Shown here piece after piece: positions 19,374 through 51,103 of a DNA stretch of 64,000 bases (position 1 is the stretch's first letter; every line of letters begins with the position of its first letter). The stretch comes from Bryobacterales bacterium (GTDB lineage: Bacteria > Acidobacteriota > Terriglobia > Bryobacterales > Bryobacteraceae). Below the pieces are notes generated by a model. That model had not been told where the DNA came from. It saw only the letters and a program-made list of their open reading frames with translations, and did not search any database. A program made the translations under genes and the position numbers. The stretch covers positions 21,395-85,394 of the forward strand of contig SHUD01000004.1 of NCBI GenBank assembly GCA_009697505.1, written 5' to 3'.

Positions 19374-20186
19374 TCAGAGTTGCACCGTCACCCGCATGAA
19401 CGTCGCGGCGATCGACGTGCCGCCATCGGCGCTCTGATTCTGCGCCTTCGCGAGTTCCACCAGTTGGCTGTTCAACTCGTCCTCTTTTCCGTTCTTCTGA
19501 GCGGCTTCGAAAGCGTTCATCGTGGGACCGTAGAATTGCCTGAACAATGCGATGACCTCCGCGGGACCCTTGCTCGGCGAGATGAAGCGGAATGTGTCCC
19601 GGACCGTGGATATCTTCTCGGCGGGCACGCCGGCCTGGCCAAAGCGCTCGACGATGTTCGCTTCCACGCCCCAGGTCATGGGACTGATGAAGCCTTCCGG
19701 GGGCGGCGGAGTAAACGCCGCACTGACCTTCAGTACCTGCGACACGAACGTCGGGTCATTGGGAATCCAGTTGCCCATGATAATCCGCCCGCCCGGCTTG
19801 GTTACCCGGACCATCTCCTTGGCGACGTCAAAAGGCTTCGGCGCGAACATGGCTCCGAATACACTGAGCGTCATGTCAAAGCTATCGTCCGCGACTCCTT
19901 GCAAGCTGCACGCGTCTCCTTCTTGAAACGTCAGATTGCGCAGCCCCGCTTCCGCCGCGCGCTGGTTCCCGGCGGCCACCAGGTTCTGGGCGATGTCGAT
20001 GCCCGTCACGTCCGCCCCCAAGCGGGCCAGCGGCAGCGCAGTCGTCCCGTCTCCGCAGCCCAGGTCCAGGACCCGCAACGGCGGCGCAATGCCCAGGGAT
20101 TGTACCAGCGCCTCTCCCGATTCGCGCATAAACGCGGCGATCGCGGTGAAATCGCCTTTCTCCCACAACGCTTTATTTGGATTCAT
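19374..20186 (-). CDS. Class I SAM-dependent methyltransferase
   Basis: 270 residues with the Rossmann methyltransferase motif VLDLGCGDGTTALPLA (about 40-55), a following acidic GADVTGIDIA strand and motif III at GGRIIMGNW. AAGGAG precedes the ATG. It resembles the UbiE/ubiquinone-type group; substrate unknown. It lies in a minus-strand cluster with an uncharacterised gene and a methanethiol methyltransferase-like gene. Substrate cannot be read from sequence. Confidence 0.85.
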   Translation of the reverse strand: MNPNKALWEKGDFTAIAAFMRESGEALVQSLGIAPPLRVLDLGCGDGTTALPLARLGADVTGIDIAQNLVAAGNQRAAEAGLRNLTFQEGDACSLQGVADDSFDMTLSVFGAMFAPKPFDVAKEMVRVTKPGGRIIMGNWIPNDPTFVSQVLKVSAAFTPPPPEGFISPMTWGVEANIVERFGQAGVPAEKISTVRDTFRFISPSKGPAEVIALFRQFYGPTMNAFEAAQKNGKEDELNSQLVELAKAQNQSADGGTSIAATFMRVTVQL

Positions 20187-20255: not shown

Positions 20256-20951
20256 CTAGGTTTGGTGGCGCGGGCGCAGGAACGCGCGCGCTACCGCGAA
20301 GAGTCCCTTTTGAGGAATCAGAAAGTCGTTCAAACGAGCCTGCTGGGCGAGCGCGCCCACTGGTCCCAGATCCTGGCCCTTTACGGTGGCTTGACTTGAT
20401 TCTATTAGCCACAGACGACGCGGATTGGCGATGAACTCCTGGCCGTTGGGTGTTTCTCCGGCAAGATTCAGCTTCCCGGTTCCCAGCGCGAACCGCGCCG
20501 CGGCGCCCATCGCCTTCAATATGAAAGGCTCTTGCCACCAGGAGTCCGGCGCCAGCCTCGCCGCCGCATTCAGTAGCCGTGTTGACCAGGACGCCCGGAG
20601 CCTCACGTTCCAGCGCAGCGCGCTCTCAATATTTACCGTGAACTGCGCCGGCGCCGTCCATTCGATTTCGATCGGGCCGACGACGTTGCGCGTGACCTCT
20701 CCGCCGAAGTAACGCGAACATCCGAGGTCCGGATTCACCGTCGAGTAGAACGTCCAGGCGCCGCGCGGGTCGCGATGCCACACGGAAGTGTAGCCGGGTC
20801 CCACCGAGGAGGCCGGAAACCGGCGCAAGGCCAGCACGTGCCCGGAACGGAAGGGAAGCCCCAGGACCGCATATCCCGCGAACCGGTCGCCATGGCCGGT
20901 GGGCAAGGCGGGGTTCGTTTCTATTTGCTCCACGATCTCTCTGGGTTTCAT
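20256..20951 (-). CDS. Uncharacterised protein
   Basis: 231 residues, no family recognised. The central part reads as beta-rich soluble sequence (YTSVWHRDPRGAWTFYSTV, CSRYFGG) and the C-terminal third is more helical. No clear signal peptide or membrane helix. It lies 19 bases after the MddA-like gene on the same strand, so co-expression with it is likely. Confidence 0.65.
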   Translation of the reverse strand: MKPREIVEQIETNPALPTGHGDRFAGYAVLGLPFRSGHVLALRRFPASSVGPGYTSVWHRDPRGAWTFYSTVNPDLGCSRYFGGEVTRNVVGPIEIEWTAPAQFTVNIESALRWNVRLRASWSTRLLNAAARLAPDSWWQEPFILKAMGAAARFALGTGKLNLAGETPNGQEFIANPRRLWLIESSQATVKGQDLGPVGALAQQARLNDFLIPQKGLFAVARAFLRPRHQT

Positions 20952-20970: not shown

Positions 20971-21756
20971 CTAGCGGGCGGCTTTTACACGCATCTCCGC
21001 CGCTGCCACCACCGGCTGCGGGATTTCGATTTGCCGGGGCAGTCCGGGGACGATCATCGGAACTTGCTTGCGGTACTCGGCGTACTCCGGATGCACCGCC
21101 ATCAGGTCACGCTCTTCGAGTTGAATCGCCAACAGAATGTAAGCCGTGGTTACCAGCGCGAAGAGCAGGTGGGTGGCGGTCATGACCGGCGTGGACCAAA
21201 AAACGCACAGCCAGCCTACATACAGGGGGTGGCGTACGATGCGATACAGAAATGGCGTGCGAAACTCCACGTTGGCCTGCGGTTGCTTTAACAGATGGCG
21301 CCAGACCTGGCGTAGTCCGAACAGATCGAAGTGGTTAATGATGAACGTGGCGAACAGGACCAGCGTCCAGCCAAACGCGTAGCCGCCGAAAAGCAGCACC
21401 CTTCCCAGGTCATCTTGAACCTCCCAGACGGTACCGCCCAGGGGCTGCCACTGCCAGAACAGAAACAGAAGCGCGAGGCTGCTCGCCAATACGTAGGTAC
21501 TGCGCTCGATGGCCACTGGTACCACTTTCGTCAGGACGCGCTTGAAGGCCGGGCGGGCCATGACGCTGTGTTGCACCGCGAACAGCGACAATAGCCCCAA
21601 GTCGATCCACAATGCGGTCTGCCAGGGGCCGGAGGCGGGAGTATCCATGGACTTGGGCACGCCGAAGTTGCCGATAAACCCGATGGCGTACAGGAACGTC
21701 GCGAGGAACACGATATAGCTCGCGGCTCCGTAGAGAAAAGTGAAAATCCGATTCAT
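20971..21756 (-). CDS. mddA: Methanethiol S-methyltransferase-like membrane protein (MddA)
   Basis: Polytopic membrane protein of 261 residues and about six helices, related to NnrU/isoprenylcysteine methyltransferases. The N-terminus FLYGAASYIVFLATFLYAIGFIGNF and VPKSMD resemble MddA, which methylates methanethiol to volatile dimethyl sulfide. The C-terminal RIVRHPLYVGWL and QLEERDLMAVHPEYAEYRK are the SAM-binding signature of the family. AAAGGAGC precedes the ATG. It faces a divergent AraC regulator. Family assignment is firm, MddA substrate moderately so. Confidence 0.75.
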   Translation of the reverse strand: MNRIFTFLYGAASYIVFLATFLYAIGFIGNFGVPKSMDTPASGPWQTALWIDLGLLSLFAVQHSVMARPAFKRVLTKVVPVAIERSTYVLASSLALLFLFWQWQPLGGTVWEVQDDLGRVLLFGGYAFGWTLVLFATFIINHFDLFGLRQVWRHLLKQPQANVEFRTPFLYRIVRHPLYVGWLCVFWSTPVMTATHLLFALVTTAYILLAIQLEERDLMAVHPEYAEYRKQVPMIVPGLPRQIEIPQPVVAAAEMRVKAAR

Positions 21757-21850: not shown

Positions 21851-23020
21851 ATGCCCGAGCGTCGCCATGACTTGCTCGAACGGCTGGAGGAAATAGATAC
21901 CTTTGCGCGGGGACCGGGCAACTTCGCAGAGAGTCCACGGAACGATATGGATGCCTTTTCCGAAATCTTGAGCGGCGTCAAGCTGAACGGGGCGGTGTTT
22001 TTCAGCGCCGAGTTTTCCGCTCCCTGGGGGTTTTCCGCATCCGCATCCGATAAGATGGCGACCGAGCTTGCCCCGGGAGCCGAACACCTGGTCCTCTACC
22101 ATTTCCTTGTCGACGGCAGTGCTCTTGTGCAAATGCCGGATGGGCGATCGCTGGAGCTTCATTCCGGGGATATCGTGATCTTTCCTCACGGAGATCCACA
22201 CCACCTGATGAGCGATCGGGCGACCAAGCCACCCTTTCCTTCCTACGGGATTAGCGCCAAGATCAAGGCGCGCGATTTGCGTCCTTTACAGGCGGGCGGC
22301 GGTGGCGATACCGCCCGTTTTGTGTGCGGCTACATGACCTGCGACCCCTACCTGAGCCGGCCGATCCTGAGCGGACTGCCCCCGGTCTTCAAGGTCAACA
22401 TCCGTACGGATCGCTCCGGGCACTGGCTGAGAATTCCATTCTGCACCCGGTGGAAGAAGCTGCTTCGGGAAGCGTCGGCAGCGAAGCCATGCTGGCCAAC
22501 TTTCGGAAGCCTTGTTCGTCGACACCCTGAGGCGCTACGTGGCCGCTTTGCCGGAACAGCAAATGGGCTGGCTGGCGGGCACCGCGACCCCATCGTGGGG
22601 AAAAGCCTGGGATTGCTGCATGGCCGTGTTGCCTATCCGTGGACCATCGCGGATCTTGCCGACGAGGTGGGGATTTCGCGGTCGGCTCTGGTAGAGCGCT
22701 TCACCAAGTATCTCTCCGAGCCCCCCATGACGTATTTGACCCGCTGGAGACTGCAATTAGCCGCCCGGTCGCTCGAAAAGACGTCACGGGGCTTCGCGGA
22801 AATTGCCGCCGGCGTCGGCTACGAATCGGAAGCGGCCTTCAATCGCGCATTTAAGCGCGAGTATGGACAGCCTCCGGGCCGCTACCGCAGCGAGCATAAG
22901 AGTGCATCGGCCAGAGCCCTCGGTGAGCCGAATGCGGAAGCGGCCGGATCACTGGCGCCGCGTCAAAAACTCAAGCGGAGAGAGAACTGCAATTCTCTCG
23001 GTCCCGGACCGGTGAGCTGA
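21851..23020 (+). CDS. AraC-family regulator with cupin domain, internally frame-scrambled
   Basis: Transcription regulator: an N-terminal AraC-type cupin (VLYHFLVDGSALVQMPDGR, about 82-100) and a C-terminal double helix-turn-helix with DEVGISRSALVERFTKYL and AAGVGYESEAAFNRAFKREY. The frame is open throughout, but the stretch from about 22428 to 22583 reads as nonsense. The expected family sequence appears there in two other frames (NSILHPVEEAASGSVGSEAML, then LFVDTLRRYVAALPEQQMGW). Three one-base losses, at about 22429, 22499 and 22582, cancel out. The real protein is probably one residue longer. It probably controls the divergent methyltransferase cluster. Confidence 0.85.
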   Translation: MPERRHDLLERLEEIDTFARGPGNFAESPRNDMDAFSEILSGVKLNGAVFFSAEFSAPWGFSASASDKMATELAPGAEHLVLYHFLVDGSALVQMPDGRSLELHSGDIVIFPHGDPHHLMSDRATKPPFPSYGISAKIKARDLRPLQAGGGGDTARFVCGYMTCDPYLSRPILSGLPPVFKVNIRTDRSGHWLRIPFCTRWKKLLREASAAKPCWPTFGSLVRRHPEALRGRFAGTANGLAGGHRDPIVGKSLGLLHGRVAYPWTIADLADEVGISRSALVERFTKYLSEPPMTYLTRWRLQLAARSLEKTSRGFAEIAAGVGYESEAAFNRAFKREYGQPPGRYRSEHKSASARALGEPNAEAAGSLAPRQKLKRRENCNSLGPGPVS

Positions 23021-26000
23021 GAGGATACGACGCCGAAGCTCGCCGTATTCACGTCGCGTCCGGGAACGTCAAAGAGCGGAGTATTGAACAAATTAAACGC
23101 TTCGCCACGGAACTGCAGTTTAAAGCGCTCGCGAATTGAGAAATCCTTAAAAATGGAGCAGTCAATATTTTGAATACCAGGCCCGCTCACGTTCGGGATG
23201 GTGCGGGAAGCATTCCCATACGTAAAGGGTGCTACCACGGAGTATGCCGCGGTGTTGAACCAACGGGTTAACGTTTGTTCTCCAGACGCCGGGTTCTGTC
23301 CCGATACTACATTAGGACGGTTGGTGTTTCCCGACTGAATCGCGATCGGAAGGCCGCCTTGCAAGGTGCTGATCGCGTTCAGGTGCCAGCCGTAGGCGAT
23401 CAACCTCTGCACTCCCTTCAAATTTTTTCCGAAAGGCACTTCCCACATTCCTGTCAGGACTATGCGCTGCGGAACGTCTTCAATACTGCGGGACCGCTCG
23501 GCCCGCAAGTTATACCAATTCAAGATAGGCGTGTTGGGATCAGTCGCGGAGATGGCGCCGGCCGCTCCGCGCGTCGAGCCGGCAGCGCCCACCGCGCCGT
23601 CAATCAGCTTGCTCTTGGTATAGGCAAGCAGGAGGGAAAACCCGTGATCAAACCGCTTTTCGACTTTGAGCGTACCCGCGTGATAGATCGAGTCTCCTAG
23701 ATACGCAAAGGTTCCATTGATGCTGTTGAAGTGGGGGTACGGCCGCAACAGTTGCTGGCGGGCAACTGTGGGATTGCTCAGGGGGCCGGTCTTGATGATC
23801 CCGTAAAACGGATTGGAAACCGATTGATTGAGCTGATTTCCCAGCGCCAGGTACTGGGGGTCGATCTGATTGTAGTTTATGGGTTGCGAAGTCAGCAAGT
23901 GCTCGCCGCGATTTCCAAGGTATGCTACCTCAATCAACCAATTTCTCCAGGGCTGGTACTGCACAGTTAAATTCCACTGCTGCGAAAAGCCCGGGGAGAT
24001 ACCGCGATTCCATCCCTGGAGGTCACTGCCCACGGCGGTCATCGCTCCCAACCCTTCATTGGCCGGCTTTTCCAATCCACTCGGGAAGGGATTCGCCATC
24101 GTGTTAAACGGAGTAAGCCCGTTGTCGAGCGAAGTGACCATCGGATTATTGGTGCGGAAACCAGAGAACGAGGGAAGCGCGTATCCTTTTGTGGGAATGA
24201 AGGTGATTCCGTACCCTCCACGCGCCACCAGTTTGTCGGTCACCTGGTAAGCGAAGCCACCGCGGGGTTGAAAATGCCGGTAGCTGGCGTTCCAGCCTCC
24301 CTGCGTATTCGGGAATGTGGCTCCTCCCTTCAAGCTCATGCCCGGAACCTGCAAGGGTGAGGGAATGTTGAGATCGATATTCGTAACCACGCCCGACCGG
24401 TCGGTGATGGGCTGTTCGCTTTCCCAGCGCATGCCTAGGTTCAGAGTCAGCTTGCGGGCCACTTTCCAGTCATCCTGCACGAAGAGTGCGTGAAATCGAG
24501 ATGCGTTGGTATTGTAGTGCTGAAGCGGAGAATTGGATTGTTGCGTGCCCGAGGGCGTGCCCAAAAGGAAGGAAGCCATGCCGAAGCCGGCAGTGGCGCT
24601 GGCCCTGTTCGGATCCGGCCCCTGGGTAAAGCCCCGGTCGAAGGCAAAGAGCCCCCGCGAAGGCCCGTTGCCGGTGTTAAAGCCGTAGAGAACGTAGAGG
24701 TAGCCCACCTTCACGTTGTGCGAACCCTTGACCTTGGTGATCGAAATACTTGCGGCGGGATCATATCCGACACGGTAGTTTTCCGACGATCCCATGAGGA
24801 CGTTGACGAAACCGTTCGCGGTCACAAGATCCGAGATATTCAGGTTAGGAATGTTCCCTTTCGGCGTGAATCTTCCGGTCGGTAGTTCCGCCGCGTAGTT
24901 GGCCGGGTAACCCAGATCCGTGAGCTTATAGCCATCGCCGTATTTTTGTGACAAAACACCGACTCCCGTTTCCCAATCACGGTTGTATCCCAGCTTCGCA
25001 TCCAACAGCAGCGTGGGGCTCAGCGTATTGGTATAAACCATCGAAAAGCTGTTGCGCGGAATGTGGGTATATCTTCCTTCGCTCTCCAGCAGCCCGGACA
25101 TGGGAACATTCGGGTTGTACCAGAAATTGGCGTAATTCCAGCTCACAACATCTCTGGTATAGCGAACCGCAATCCGCTGCCGGTCGGAAATGTTGTAATC
25201 TACCTTCAACCCCGTGTCGTAACGGTTTGACGGCTGCGACCCTCTCTGGAAGAGATTGTTGATGCCCGTGACCGGCGCACCCTGAGTATTGGGCCGGGGA
25301 TAGATCGAAAAAATCTTTTGCGCGAGCGCGCCCTGACGGTTGAGTGGAATCTTGTTTCCCGGAAATGGAGTGCGGACGTATCCGCCCGGAACGGCTGGAT
25401 TCGGCCGCGTGGTGGATGGATCGTAAATTAAGATCAACCCGCCGTTGGCGGCGAAGGTCTGGGAAAAGTCGCCGCTCCTTTGCAGGTCCGTGGGCGCCGT
25501 ATTCACACGGCCGAAGCCGCGACGTTCCTTGTAGCCCTCATAGTTGTAAAAGAAAAAGATCTTGTCTTTCTTGAGGGGTCCTCCGAAGGTGCCGCCATAC
25601 TGATTGACATTCAACTGCGTCCGCGGAAAGCCCGACCGGTTGGAAAAAAAGTCGTTGGCCTTCATCTCCGTGTTGCGCAAGTATTCAAAAAGCAGGCCAT
25701 GGTACTCATTCGTCCCGCCTTTGCTGATGATGCTGATGATCCCGCCGCCGGTGCGCCCGTATTCGGCGGATGGCGTATTCGTGATTACCTTGAACTCCTG
25801 GGTCGCGTCCACCGTGAGAAACGTGATCCCGCCGGCGGCGTCGCCGATCTTATCGTCCGGCAGTCCATCAATCAGCCAACCCTGCGAAATGGGAGTCCCG
25901 CCGCCAATGTTGACCGCCCCGGAGCGGAAGGTTTCCAGAACCGGCCCGCCGAAGGCGCTGAGTCCTCTCACGGTGGGGATCAGATTGGCGAGACCCATCG

Positions 26001-26463
26001 GATTGCGTCCGCTGAGGGGCAGGTTGTCGATTTTGGCCCGGTCCATCACCGTGCCGACTTCCGATGTATTGGCCTCCAGTAGCACGGCCCCAGACTGCAC
26101 TTCAACGGTTTCCGTGACCTGACCAATGGTGAGAGCGATGGGAACTGCTTGGGAACGGTCCGCTTCCACGACGATTCCTTCACGGCGGAACGACTTAAAA
26201 CCTTGCGCCCCTGCCGTCAGCGCATAGTTGCCGGGCGGAACTAACAGGAACTGGAAATTACCCTGCCCGTCAGAGGTCGCGGTCAGGTTAAGGCCCGTGG
26301 CGGCGCTGGTCAGCTTGACCTCGGCCCCCACGACAGGGGCACTAGAGGGGTCTACAATCGCGCCTGTGACCGCGCCGGTCGTCTGGCCAAACAAGGCCAA
26401 ACTGGAGAAGAAGAAGATCAGAACTCCCATGTACCGCGTGACCGAATATCTACTCGACGGCAT
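22963..26463 (-). CDS. TonB-dependent receptor with carboxypeptidase-regulatory domain (Oar-like)
   Basis: Outer-membrane receptor of 1166 residues. A signal peptide (MGVLIFFFSSLALFGQ) precedes a beta-sandwich carboxypeptidase-regulatory domain (about 30-115), then a plug with RNPMGLANLIPTVRG and GGIISIISKGGTNEYHG. DFFSNRSGFPRTQLNVNQYGGTFGGP opens the barrel, and the C-terminus ends in the aromatic RELQFSLRLSF. Acidobacterial genomes carry many of these for uptake of large substrates. It would need the TonB/ExbBD system near position 1000 or another. The 3' end overlaps the AraC gene by 58 bases in convergent direction. Confidence 0.93.
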   Translation of the reverse strand: MPSSRYSVTRYMGVLIFFFSSLALFGQTTGAVTGAIVDPSSAPVVGAEVKLTSAATGLNLTATSDGQGNFQFLLVPPGNYALTAGAQGFKSFRREGIVVEADRSQAVPIALTIGQVTETVEVQSGAVLLEANTSEVGTVMDRAKIDNLPLSGRNPMGLANLIPTVRGLSAFGGPVLETFRSGAVNIGGGTPISQGWLIDGLPDDKIGDAAGGITFLTVDATQEFKVITNTPSAEYGRTGGGIISIISKGGTNEYHGLLFEYLRNTEMKANDFFSNRSGFPRTQLNVNQYGGTFGGPLKKDKIFFFYNYEGYKERRGFGRVNTAPTDLQRSGDFSQTFAANGGLILIYDPSTTRPNPAVPGGYVRTPFPGNKIPLNRQGALAQKIFSIYPRPNTQGAPVTGINNLFQRGSQPSNRYDTGLKVDYNISDRQRIAVRYTRDVVSWNYANFWYNPNVPMSGLLESEGRYTHIPRNSFSMVYTNTLSPTLLLDAKLGYNRDWETGVGVLSQKYGDGYKLTDLGYPANYAAELPTGRFTPKGNIPNLNISDLVTANGFVNVLMGSSENYRVGYDPAASISITKVKGSHNVKVGYLYVLYGFNTGNGPSRGLFAFDRGFTQGPDPNRASATAGFGMASFLLGTPSGTQQSNSPLQHYNTNASRFHALFVQDDWKVARKLTLNLGMRWESEQPITDRSGVVTNIDLNIPSPLQVPGMSLKGGATFPNTQGGWNASYRHFQPRGGFAYQVTDKLVARGGYGITFIPTKGYALPSFSGFRTNNPMVTSLDNGLTPFNTMANPFPSGLEKPANEGLGAMTAVGSDLQGWNRGISPGFSQQWNLTVQYQPWRNWLIEVAYLGNRGEHLLTSQPINYNQIDPQYLALGNQLNQSVSNPFYGIIKTGPLSNPTVARQQLLRPYPHFNSINGTFAYLGDSIYHAGTLKVEKRFDHGFSLLLAYTKSKLIDGAVGAAGSTRGAAGAISATDPNTPILNWYNLRAERSRSIEDVPQRIVLTGMWEVPFGKNLKGVQRLIAYGWHLNAISTLQGGLPIAIQSGNTNRPNVVSGQNPASGEQTLTRWFNTAAYSVVAPFTYGNASRTIPNVSGPGIQNIDCSIFKDFSIRERFKLQFRGEAFNLFNTPLFDVPGRDVNTASFGVVSSQLTGPGPRELQFSLRLSF

Positions 26464-38364: not shown

Positions 38365-38745
38365 ATGCAACTCGATTTCACAAAACTCGATGGACTGCTG
38401 CCGGCGGTGATCCAGGATCACCAGACCGGCCGCGTCCTGATGGTCGGCTTCATGAACGAAGAGGCCTTCCGCAAGACAGTGGAGACCGGCTTCGCCACCT
38501 TCTATAGCCGCTCGCGCAACAAGCTGTGGCTCAAGGGCGAGAGCTCCGGCCATCGCCTGGTCGTCAAGGAAATCTCGACCGACTGCGATGTGGATACGGT
38601 TCTGGTCAAGGTCGAAGCCCTGGGGCCGGGCGTGTGCCACGAAGGCTATCAGAGTTGCTTTTTCCGGCGCCTGGAAGACGGCGAGTGGAAAATCGGCGAA
38701 GAGCGCACCTACGATCCGAATGCGGTCTATGGGAACCAGGGGTGA
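38365..38745 (+). CDS. hisI: Phosphoribosyl-AMP cyclohydrolase
   Basis: Opens the purine ring of phosphoribosyl-AMP. The 126-residue monofunctional HisI has the metal motif STDCDVDT and the CHEGYQSCFFR sequence. No HisE (phosphoribosyl-ATP pyrophosphatase) domain is fused and no separate hisE is in the window, so that step must be encoded elsewhere. First structural gene after the attenuator. Confidence 0.97.
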   Translation: MQLDFTKLDGLLPAVIQDHQTGRVLMVGFMNEEAFRKTVETGFATFYSRSRNKLWLKGESSGHRLVVKEISTDCDVDTVLVKVEALGPGVCHEGYQSCFFRRLEDGEWKIGEERTYDPNAVYGNQG

Positions 38746-39678: not shown

Positions 39679-40901
39679 TGATCCGCATTCTCACAGATAA
39701 AGATGCGCCCACGCTTATCCGGCGTAAAGCCGTGCGCCTGGAAGAGGCCGAGCGCATCGTGGCTCCGATTCTGGCCGCTGTCCGCGAGCGCGGCGACGCG
39801 GCTCTGCTCGAATACGCGCGCAAGTTCGACGGCTTCGATGGGGCGAGCGTCCGCATGGAGGTCAGTGGATCGCTGGAGCCGGCCTTTGAGCGTGCCGTCG
39901 CGGTCGCGGCAAACAACATTCGCCAGTACGCCGAGACCCAATTGCCGCCGGAATGGTTCACTGACTATCCCGATGGCCGCAGGCTGGGCCAGATCGTGCG
40001 GCCTCTCGATGCCATGGGCGCGTACGTTCCGGCGGGGCGTTATCCGTTGCCTTCGACGCTGCTGATGACGGTGATCCCGGCGCAAGTGGCCGGCGTCCGA
40101 ACGATCTGCGTGGCATGTCCGAATCCGAGTCGGGAAATCTTGGGTATCGCGCAGTGGCTTGGACTGCCGCATCTCTACCGCATGGGTGGGGCGCAAGCGA
40201 TTGCGGCTTTGGCGTATGGAACCGAGACCGTGCCCAAGGTGGATCGCATCGTGGGGCCGGGGAACATCTACGTCGCCGCGGCCAAGAAGTTGATTGCCGG
40301 AGAAACGGGGATCGACTTCGTTGCGGGACCCACGGAGATCGTGATCATTGCCGCCGATGGCGACCCGCGCTGGATCGCGGCGGATCTGCTGGCGCAGGCC
40401 GAGCATGACGTGGACGCATCGGCGATCTTGCTGACTACGTCGAAGTCGCTGGCCGAAGCTGTCGCCAAAGAGGTGGAAGTGCAACTCGCAACGCTGCTGA
40501 CCGCTGCTGTCGCGCGGCCGTCGATTGAGAACAACGGCGCGATCGTCGTTCTCGAGACGCTGGAACAGGCCATGGAGATCTCGAACGCTCTAGCGCCGGA
40601 GCACTTGGCGCTGCATGACGAAACCCTGCTCGAGAAAGTGCGGCATGCGGGAGCGGTGTTCGTCGGCGCGTCGAGTCCCGAATCAGCAGGCGATTATGCC
40701 TCCGGCCCTAATCACGTTCTGCCCACCTCGGGAGCCGCCCGGTTGCGCGGAGGCCTGTCCGCCGCGGATTTCGTCAAGGTCATCGCCGTGCAGCAATTGA
40801 GCCCGGAGGGGCTCGCGAAACTCACGCCGGCAATTACGGCGCTGGCGCGCGCCGAAGGCTTAGAGGCACACGCCCGCTCGGCGGAGGTACGCGGTGAATA
40901 G
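39678..40901 (+). CDS. hisD: Histidinol dehydrogenase
   Basis: Two-step NAD-linked oxidation of histidinol to histidine. ATG at 39678 begins MIRILTDKDAPTLIRRKAV; a GTG at 39666 lies inside the repeat and is less likely. The 407-residue enzyme has GPGNIYVAAAKKLI, the QAEHD zinc ligands and the ALAPEHLALH Glu-His pair. It overlaps hisC by eight bases. Confidence 0.97.
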   Translation: MIRILTDKDAPTLIRRKAVRLEEAERIVAPILAAVRERGDAALLEYARKFDGFDGASVRMEVSGSLEPAFERAVAVAANNIRQYAETQLPPEWFTDYPDGRRLGQIVRPLDAMGAYVPAGRYPLPSTLLMTVIPAQVAGVRTICVACPNPSREILGIAQWLGLPHLYRMGGAQAIAALAYGTETVPKVDRIVGPGNIYVAAAKKLIAGETGIDFVAGPTEIVIIAADGDPRWIAADLLAQAEHDVDASAILLTTSKSLAEAVAKEVEVQLATLLTAAVARPSIENNGAIVVLETLEQAMEISNALAPEHLALHDETLLEKVRHAGAVFVGASSPESAGDYASGPNHVLPTSGAARLRGGLSAADFVKVIAVQQLSPEGLAKLTPAITALARAEGLEAHARSAEVRGE

Positions 40902-49741: not shown

Positions 49742-50997
49742 CTAGCCCTTGGCGAAGTACAACGCCGTCGCGCGTTCCAGCTCCGATTTGGTCATCATCG
49801 GCGGACGGCCCTCATAACGCCCGATCGAATTCAGAATCGTGCAGATATCGGAAGGGTAGCAGGCGCGAAGTTCAGTGCGGCCCTCGCGCAGGCACAACTT
49901 GCGGAGATATTCCGCGCTATCCGGTTCGGCTTCCATGTTGCGCCCTTTCACCACGCGCTCAAAGATCTGATCGAAGGAGTGGCTATCCACCGCCTCCACC
50001 AGAATCTTGTTGTGAATACGGCGCAGGAAGGCTTCGTCGGCGAGATCCGACGGTTCCAGGTTGGTGGAAAACACGACCATGGTCTCAAAGGGAATCTGGA
50101 ATTTGACGCCGTAGCGCAGGGTCAGGTAATCCACGCGGCGGTCCAGGGGCACGATCCAGCGGTTCAGTAAGTCGCGGGGAGACATGAGCTGGCGGCCAAA
50201 GTCGTCGATCAGCAGGATGCCGTTGTTGGCCTTCATCTGCAGGGGCGCGGCGTAGATACTGGAGCTTTCGTCCAGGCGCATGTCGAGCATGCTGGGGATG
50301 AGTTCGCCGCCCACCACGATGCAGGGCCGCTTGCAGACCACCCAGCGCGGGTCGAGGTCTTCTTCGTCGTGATCGATGGCGTGGTGCACCACGGGTCATA
50401 GAGACTGATGATCTGGTTGTCGACTTCGACGGCGTAGGGGATCAGGATCGAGTCCTTGTAAACGCGCAGCATGCGCTCGGCAAGGCTGGTTTTTCCGTTG
50501 CCGGTCGGGCCGTAGATAAAGATGGAATTCTGTGAAATGATGGCGGGGCCAAGCTGATCCAGCATGCGATCGGGAACGATCAGGTCGGAAAACGCGTTGC
50601 GCAGGATTTCGCGATCCACGTTGACCTTGGCGGCCTGCGCTTTGACCGCCGCGTAGTATTCGTTGAGCGACACCGGGCAGGCGCCCGCATATTGGGAAAC
50701 TTGAAAACGTTCCGTGGCGTACTGCTTTCCTGCGGCCGACAGCACAAAGTTGTAGTCGTTGCCGCTCATGCCTTTGACTTCGACGAGATGGAGCTGGCGC
50801 ATGTGCTTGAAGGCCTGGTCCACGATGGGAACCGATATCCGCAGGGCGCGGCTCAGGCTGTTCAGATTGCAATAGCCCTCGATCATCATGCGGCGGACGA
50901 CCAGATCCAATATCAGGTTTTCGGAAATGCCTAGCTCGGCGAAATTCTGCGGGATGGCCGGCGCAAAGGCGGTCCTGACGGGGGCATAAGTGATCAT
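49742..50997 (-). CDS. AAA+ ATPase with winged-helix N-terminus, frameshifted
   Basis: About 418 residues when joined. ATG 50997 begins MITYAPVRTAF. Walker A GPTGNGKTS is at 163-171 and Walker B ILLIDDFGRQ further on; AVVRRMMIEGYC and LSRALRISVPIV look like a DNA-binding winged helix. The frame is broken at about 50392, where a missing base in CCACCGGG leaves two ORFs (50233-51060 and 49742-50392). Divergent from the secretin gene, a possible regulator or motor of it. Family function unknown. Confidence 0.75.
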
Positions 50998-51103
50998 GGT
51001 AAGCGGTCCTCTACGGATGTATCGGCGGGAACCGCCAGGGAGTTTACGGGTGCATTGCACGCCCGGGCCGCGGGGAACGTCTATCGTATGATTGGTCTAA
51101 CCA

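What the first reader, a model, noticed from the sequence alone, without database searches (positions are those of the whole stretch)
22428..22584. Three compensating one-base losses in the AraC regulator
The frames move 2-1-0-2 across 155 bases, with the expected family sequence visible in the other two frames. Each site is a short run (GG, AAA, CCC). Net loss is three bases, so the ORF stays open and automatic annotation would not notice it.
Basis: seen in the sequence. Interest (0 to 1): 0.5.

Follow-up and report, generated by a model that had tools for sequence, protein, structure and literature searches.

The report
Masked triple frameshift in AraC regulator
A regulator gene in a soil bacterium's draft genome is missing three single bases within 155 bases, which garbles 51 amino acids but leaves the gene looking intact; most likely it is a local sequencing or assembly error, and it is ordinary.

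Summary
ORF 21851-23020 (+) is an AraC-type regulator (Cupin_6 + HTH_18). Against homologues the window alone has three one-base gaps, at about 22429, 22498-22499 and 22582-22583. Residues between them are read in the wrong frames; the original frame resumes after 22583, one codon short. All 76 distinct homologues that could be measured have 52 residues there; the window has 51 and loses three residues invariant in 36 homologues. No homologue in the searches shares the scramble. Under the family frame, substitutions in the stretch are still mostly at third positions, and there is no excess of changes at conserved columns, so the losses are very recent or not real. In 84 kb of conserved coding sequence from this draft genome (65% complete, 87 contigs) the only other frame break is one more one-base loss, at ~50393. 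Three independent losses falling within 155 bases is very unlikely (expected 4e-5). AlphaFold2 confidence in the affected helices drops from 80-91 to 47-68. Best reading: a local consensus error (about 0.6); next, a real, very recent inactivation (about 0.33). A working remodelled linker or programmed frameshifting is very unlikely. Reads are needed to decide. Low interest.

The parts
21851..23020 (+). AraC-type regulator ORF, 389 codons: Cupin_6 (residues 34-194), linker helices, HTH_18 (residues 269-347)
22429..22429 (+). first one-base loss (GG/CG in relatives, single G here)
   Evidence: 7 of 7 relatives
22498..22499 (+). second one-base loss (AAA/AAG in relatives, AA here)
   Evidence: 7 of 7 relatives; 22496 in that alignment
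22582..22583 (+). third one-base loss; which base of the CC/CG stretch is lost cannot be told
   Evidence: 7 of 7 relatives
22430..22582 (+). 51 codons read out of the family frame; would-be linker helices (family consensus ENSILHLVEEAASG..GSEAMLAKLSEALFVDTLRRY..LPEQQTGWLAG)
50391..50395 (-). another one-base loss, in a conserved AAA-type ATPase-like gene (49745-51003, -); the only other frame break found
   Evidence: (5 of 5 relatives)

Best explanation
The gene is an ordinary AraC-type regulator with an N-terminal cupin (Cupin_6) sensor domain. The three losses are a local error of the consensus sequence in a fragmentary draft genome, for example a short stretch carried by one poor read or a badly resolved assembly path. 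In the living cell the gene is then intact and the 51 scrambled residues do not exist. Shown: the three gaps, their absence in all relatives examined, the lack of any decay by substitution, and their clustering. Inferred: that the cause is technical.
For: Three one-base losses lie in 155 bases while 84 kb of conserved coding sequence from the same genome holds only one other frame break, again a one-base loss; expected triples if independent, 4e-5. In the family frame, 17-20 of 25-28 differences from the nearest relatives fall at third codon positions (p 1.5e-3 to 4e-5). At 423 conserved columns the window differs at 7, and intact close relatives L002-L005 at 5-7; there is no excess inside the shifted stretch (2). 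So the gene was under selection in the family frame until now, and three indels came without the substitutions that separate neutral mutations would have brought. The genome is a draft, 65% complete in 87 contigs. A published survey shows that low-coverage or low-quality assemblies produce many false frameshifts in bacterial genomes (PMC11017572).
Against: No reads or coverage are available. The losses are in runs of only 2-3 bases, not long homopolymers, and the rest of the sampled genome is clean, so the assembly is not generally poor. Other family members are also broken: L053/L119 has four frame breaks in its own mddA-AraC pair, L026/L084 a 31-base deletion, L095 is a decayed paralogue. 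Real loss of this regulator is therefore plausible, although those genomes are drafts too.
Confidence: 0.6

Rival explanations
1. Real and very recent inactivation: one complex mutational event (for instance a patch copied by an error-prone polymerase) removed three single bases, leaving an open ORF whose product has a destroyed linker. The gene is a hidden pseudogene.
For: Clustered, deletion-only pattern with no other damage fits one event. Broken copies of this regulator occur in other members of the family. The scrambled product loses residues invariant in 36 homologues (G, L, E at L083 positions 210, 215, 220), and model confidence for residues 191-240 falls to 47-68 against 80-91 in an intact homologue.
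Against: A single event making three separated one-base losses is rare; there are no other recent changes; no second genome carries it.
Confidence: 0.33
2. Compensated evolution: one real loss followed by two further losses selected because they restored the frame; the remodelled linker works.
For: The downstream HTH is in frame and well conserved.
Against: The 52-residue spacing is kept in 76 of 76 distinct homologues, the linker carries invariant residues, and the substitution record leaves no time for three successive steps.
Confidence: 0.04
3. Programmed frameshifting or transcriptional slippage at three sites makes the normal protein from the genomic sequence.
For: Sites are short runs; reading across them would give the family protein.
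Against: Runs are only 1-2 bases in the window, too short for known slippage; three sites in one gene; no homologue has such sites.
Confidence: 0.02

Closest known systems
AraC-family regulators with N-terminal Cupin_6 domain (Pfam PF12852 + PF12833); nearest named NCBIfam model RclR (NF040475), well below its cut-off
   Same: Domain order and length; HTH part 80-92% identical to most of the nearest Acidobacteriota homologues; cupin part intact
   Different: 51 linker residues are out of frame; RclR membership not met (90 bits against a cut-off of 400)
Spurious pseudogenes / frameshift errors in draft bacterial assemblies (PMC11017572)
   Same: One-base indels in a draft genome, gene otherwise under selection
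   Different: The net change is a multiple of three, so the ORF stays open and no pseudogene would be flagged by ORF length or stops

Membership tests
AraC-type regulator with Cupin_6 sensor | Cupin_6 domain above Pfam cut-off | tested here: met
   102.3 bits vs 26.7, residues 34-194
AraC-type regulator with Cupin_6 sensor | AraC HTH above Pfam cut-off | tested here: met
   HTH_18 74.4 bits vs 33.6, residues 269-347
AraC-type regulator with Cupin_6 sensor | conserved 52-residue linker with invariant residues (a feature of the close homologues, not of the Pfam definition) | tested here: not met
   51 residues, other sequence, invariant G/L/E absent; present in the DNA only in the other frames
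RclR (reactive chlorine regulator) | NCBIfam equivalog score | tested here: not met
   90.2 bits vs cut-off 400
Decayed pseudogene | frame-breaking changes against intact homologues | tested here: met
   three one-base losses
Decayed pseudogene | relaxed constraint (excess non-synonymous or conserved-site changes) | tested here: not met
   7 of 423 conserved columns, like intact relatives; third-position bias kept
Sequencing/assembly error | reads disagree with the consensus | not testable with these tools
   no reads held

The most novel reading that the evidence does not exclude
A single real mutational event made three one-base deletions within 155 bases, producing a frame-preserving, ORF-open hidden pseudogene (or a remodelled linker) in an otherwise intact regulator next to mddA, a locus that is broken, apparently independently, in other Acidobacteriota drafts.
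Probability: 0.15. Interest if true: 0.35.

Novelty: already known. Interest (0 to 1): 0.12.

Why it matters
Compensated one-base losses leave an ORF open, so pipelines that look for stops or shortened ORFs do not flag them, and scrambled stretches enter protein databases as if real. Comparing gap lengths and spacing with relatives detects them. If the losses were real, this would be a clean case of a clustered-deletion event and a hidden pseudogene of a regulator beside a dimethylsulfide-forming gene.

Tried and rejected
Homologues with the same scramble: none in 237 family genomes or in the 80 best GTDB loci. Origin of the stretch from another copy in the same genome: only one match. A locally degraded sequence with many wrong bases: no excess of substitutions. 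A generally poor assembly: only one other frame break in 84 kb of conserved coding sequence. The candidate break at 38714 was two neighbouring genes (the first stops before the next starts), and that at 40892 is a junction of two genes that run together in one relative; many +1/-1 pairs were alignment noise. Papers on error-prone polymerases gave no direct parallel.

Full report
What was checked. The window is bases 21395-85394 of contig 84 of a draft genome of 2.56 Mb in 87 contigs, 65% complete. Its nearest matches are Bryobacterales/Terriglobia (Acidobacteriota) draft genomes. The ORF 21851-23020 on the + strand codes for 389 residues and carries Cupin_6 (residues 34-194) and an AraC HTH (residues 269-347), both well above the Pfam cut-offs. 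The nearest named NCBIfam model is RclR, far below its cut-off.

The three-frame translation shows family sequence in frame 0 up to 22429, in a second frame to about 22498, in a third to about 22581, and in frame 0 again from 22583. A multiple alignment with more than 20 homologous loci places exactly three one-base gaps, all in the window and in no homologue. A separate blastn scan against relative genomes finds the same three gaps against 7 of 7. All 76 distinct homologous stretches that could be measured have 52 residues between the cupin end and the RDPIVGKSL block; the window has 51.

The scramble is not shared. A search of 237 genomes of the family found intact relatives but no copy of the scrambled stretch, and none was seen among the 80 best loci of the GTDB contig collection. 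Some homologues are broken in other ways. L053/L119 has a one-base loss in the linker and a later insertion, plus two frame breaks in the neighbouring mddA gene. L026/L084 has a 31-base deletion in the cupin part. L095 is a decayed paralogue at a contig end.

The stretch has not decayed. Compared with its nearest relatives in the family frame, 17-20 of 25-28 differences in the stretch are at third codon positions, 15-18 codon changes are synonymous and 5-8 are not (binomial p 1.5e-3 to 4e-5). At 423 columns conserved among 20 relatives the window departs at 7, two of them inside the stretch; close intact relatives depart at 5-7. Inference from general knowledge, not tested here (indels are a small minority of neutral mutations in bacteria): three separate real indels should have come with many substitutions, and these are missing. 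So either the losses are not real, or they arose very recently and together.

How clean is the rest. Proteins from relatives were compared with the window and three further 20-kb stretches of the same genome. In 84 kb of coding sequence covered at 60% identity or more, the only breaks supported by several relatives in the true frame were this cluster and one more one-base loss at about 50391-50395, in a conserved ATPase-like gene on the minus strand. With four losses in 84 kb the expected number of triples within 155 bases is 4e-5, so the three very probably share one cause.

What it would do if real. The linker forms two helices in a model of an intact homologue (L083), with mean confidence 80-91 per ten residues over residues 191-240; in the model of the window's own protein the same blocks fall to 57, 47, 68, 61 and 49 while the cupin and HTH parts stay high. 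Residues invariant in 36 homologues (G210, L215, E220 of L083) are lost. The protein would probably fold its two domains but lose the helices that join them, and most likely not work (inference).

Verdict. A local consensus error is the best reading (0.6): one cause, one-base losses only, no decay, draft genome; false frameshifts of this sort are well documented (PMC11017572). A real, very recent inactivation is second (0.33). A working remodelled linker (0.04) and programmed slippage (0.02) are very unlikely. Only reads or an independent sequence can decide. The point of general use is that a net loss of three bases keeps the ORF open, so ORF-based annotation stays silent.

Noticed in passing
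50391-50395 (gene 49745-51003, -): A one-base loss splits a conserved AAA-type ATPase-like gene; 5 of 5 relatives have it intact. The ORF list shows only a truncated 275-residue ORF (50233-51060).
   Followed up: partly
20971-21756 (-) beside 21851-23020 (+): mddA (methanethiol S-methyltransferase, NF045656, 335 bits vs 270) lies divergently next to the AraC regulator; in G224 contig 87 a single match spans both, which suggests the regulator controls it.
   Followed up: partly
19374-20186 (-): A SAM methyltransferase whose homologue lies directly next to the AraC homologue in G013, G224, G016 and G020; in the window two genes sit between them.
   Followed up: no
20256-20951 (-): A 231-residue protein between the methyltransferase and mddA with no Pfam or NCBIfam match.
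   Followed up: no
L053 600-2520 and L119 (G091): In another genus the mddA-AraC pair has four frame breaks within about 1.9 kb, while about 22 kb (not de-duplicated) of other covered sequence of that genome shows none: either another local error cluster or real loss of this locus.
   Followed up: partly
L026/L084 (G016) and L095 (G013 contig 96): A 31-base deletion inside the cupin part, and a decayed paralogue with deletions and a stop: copies of this regulator are lost in several genomes.
   Followed up: partly
22963-23020: The 3' end of the AraC ORF runs past its homologues and overlaps the end of the convergent outer-membrane beta-barrel gene (22963-26463, -).
   Followed up: no
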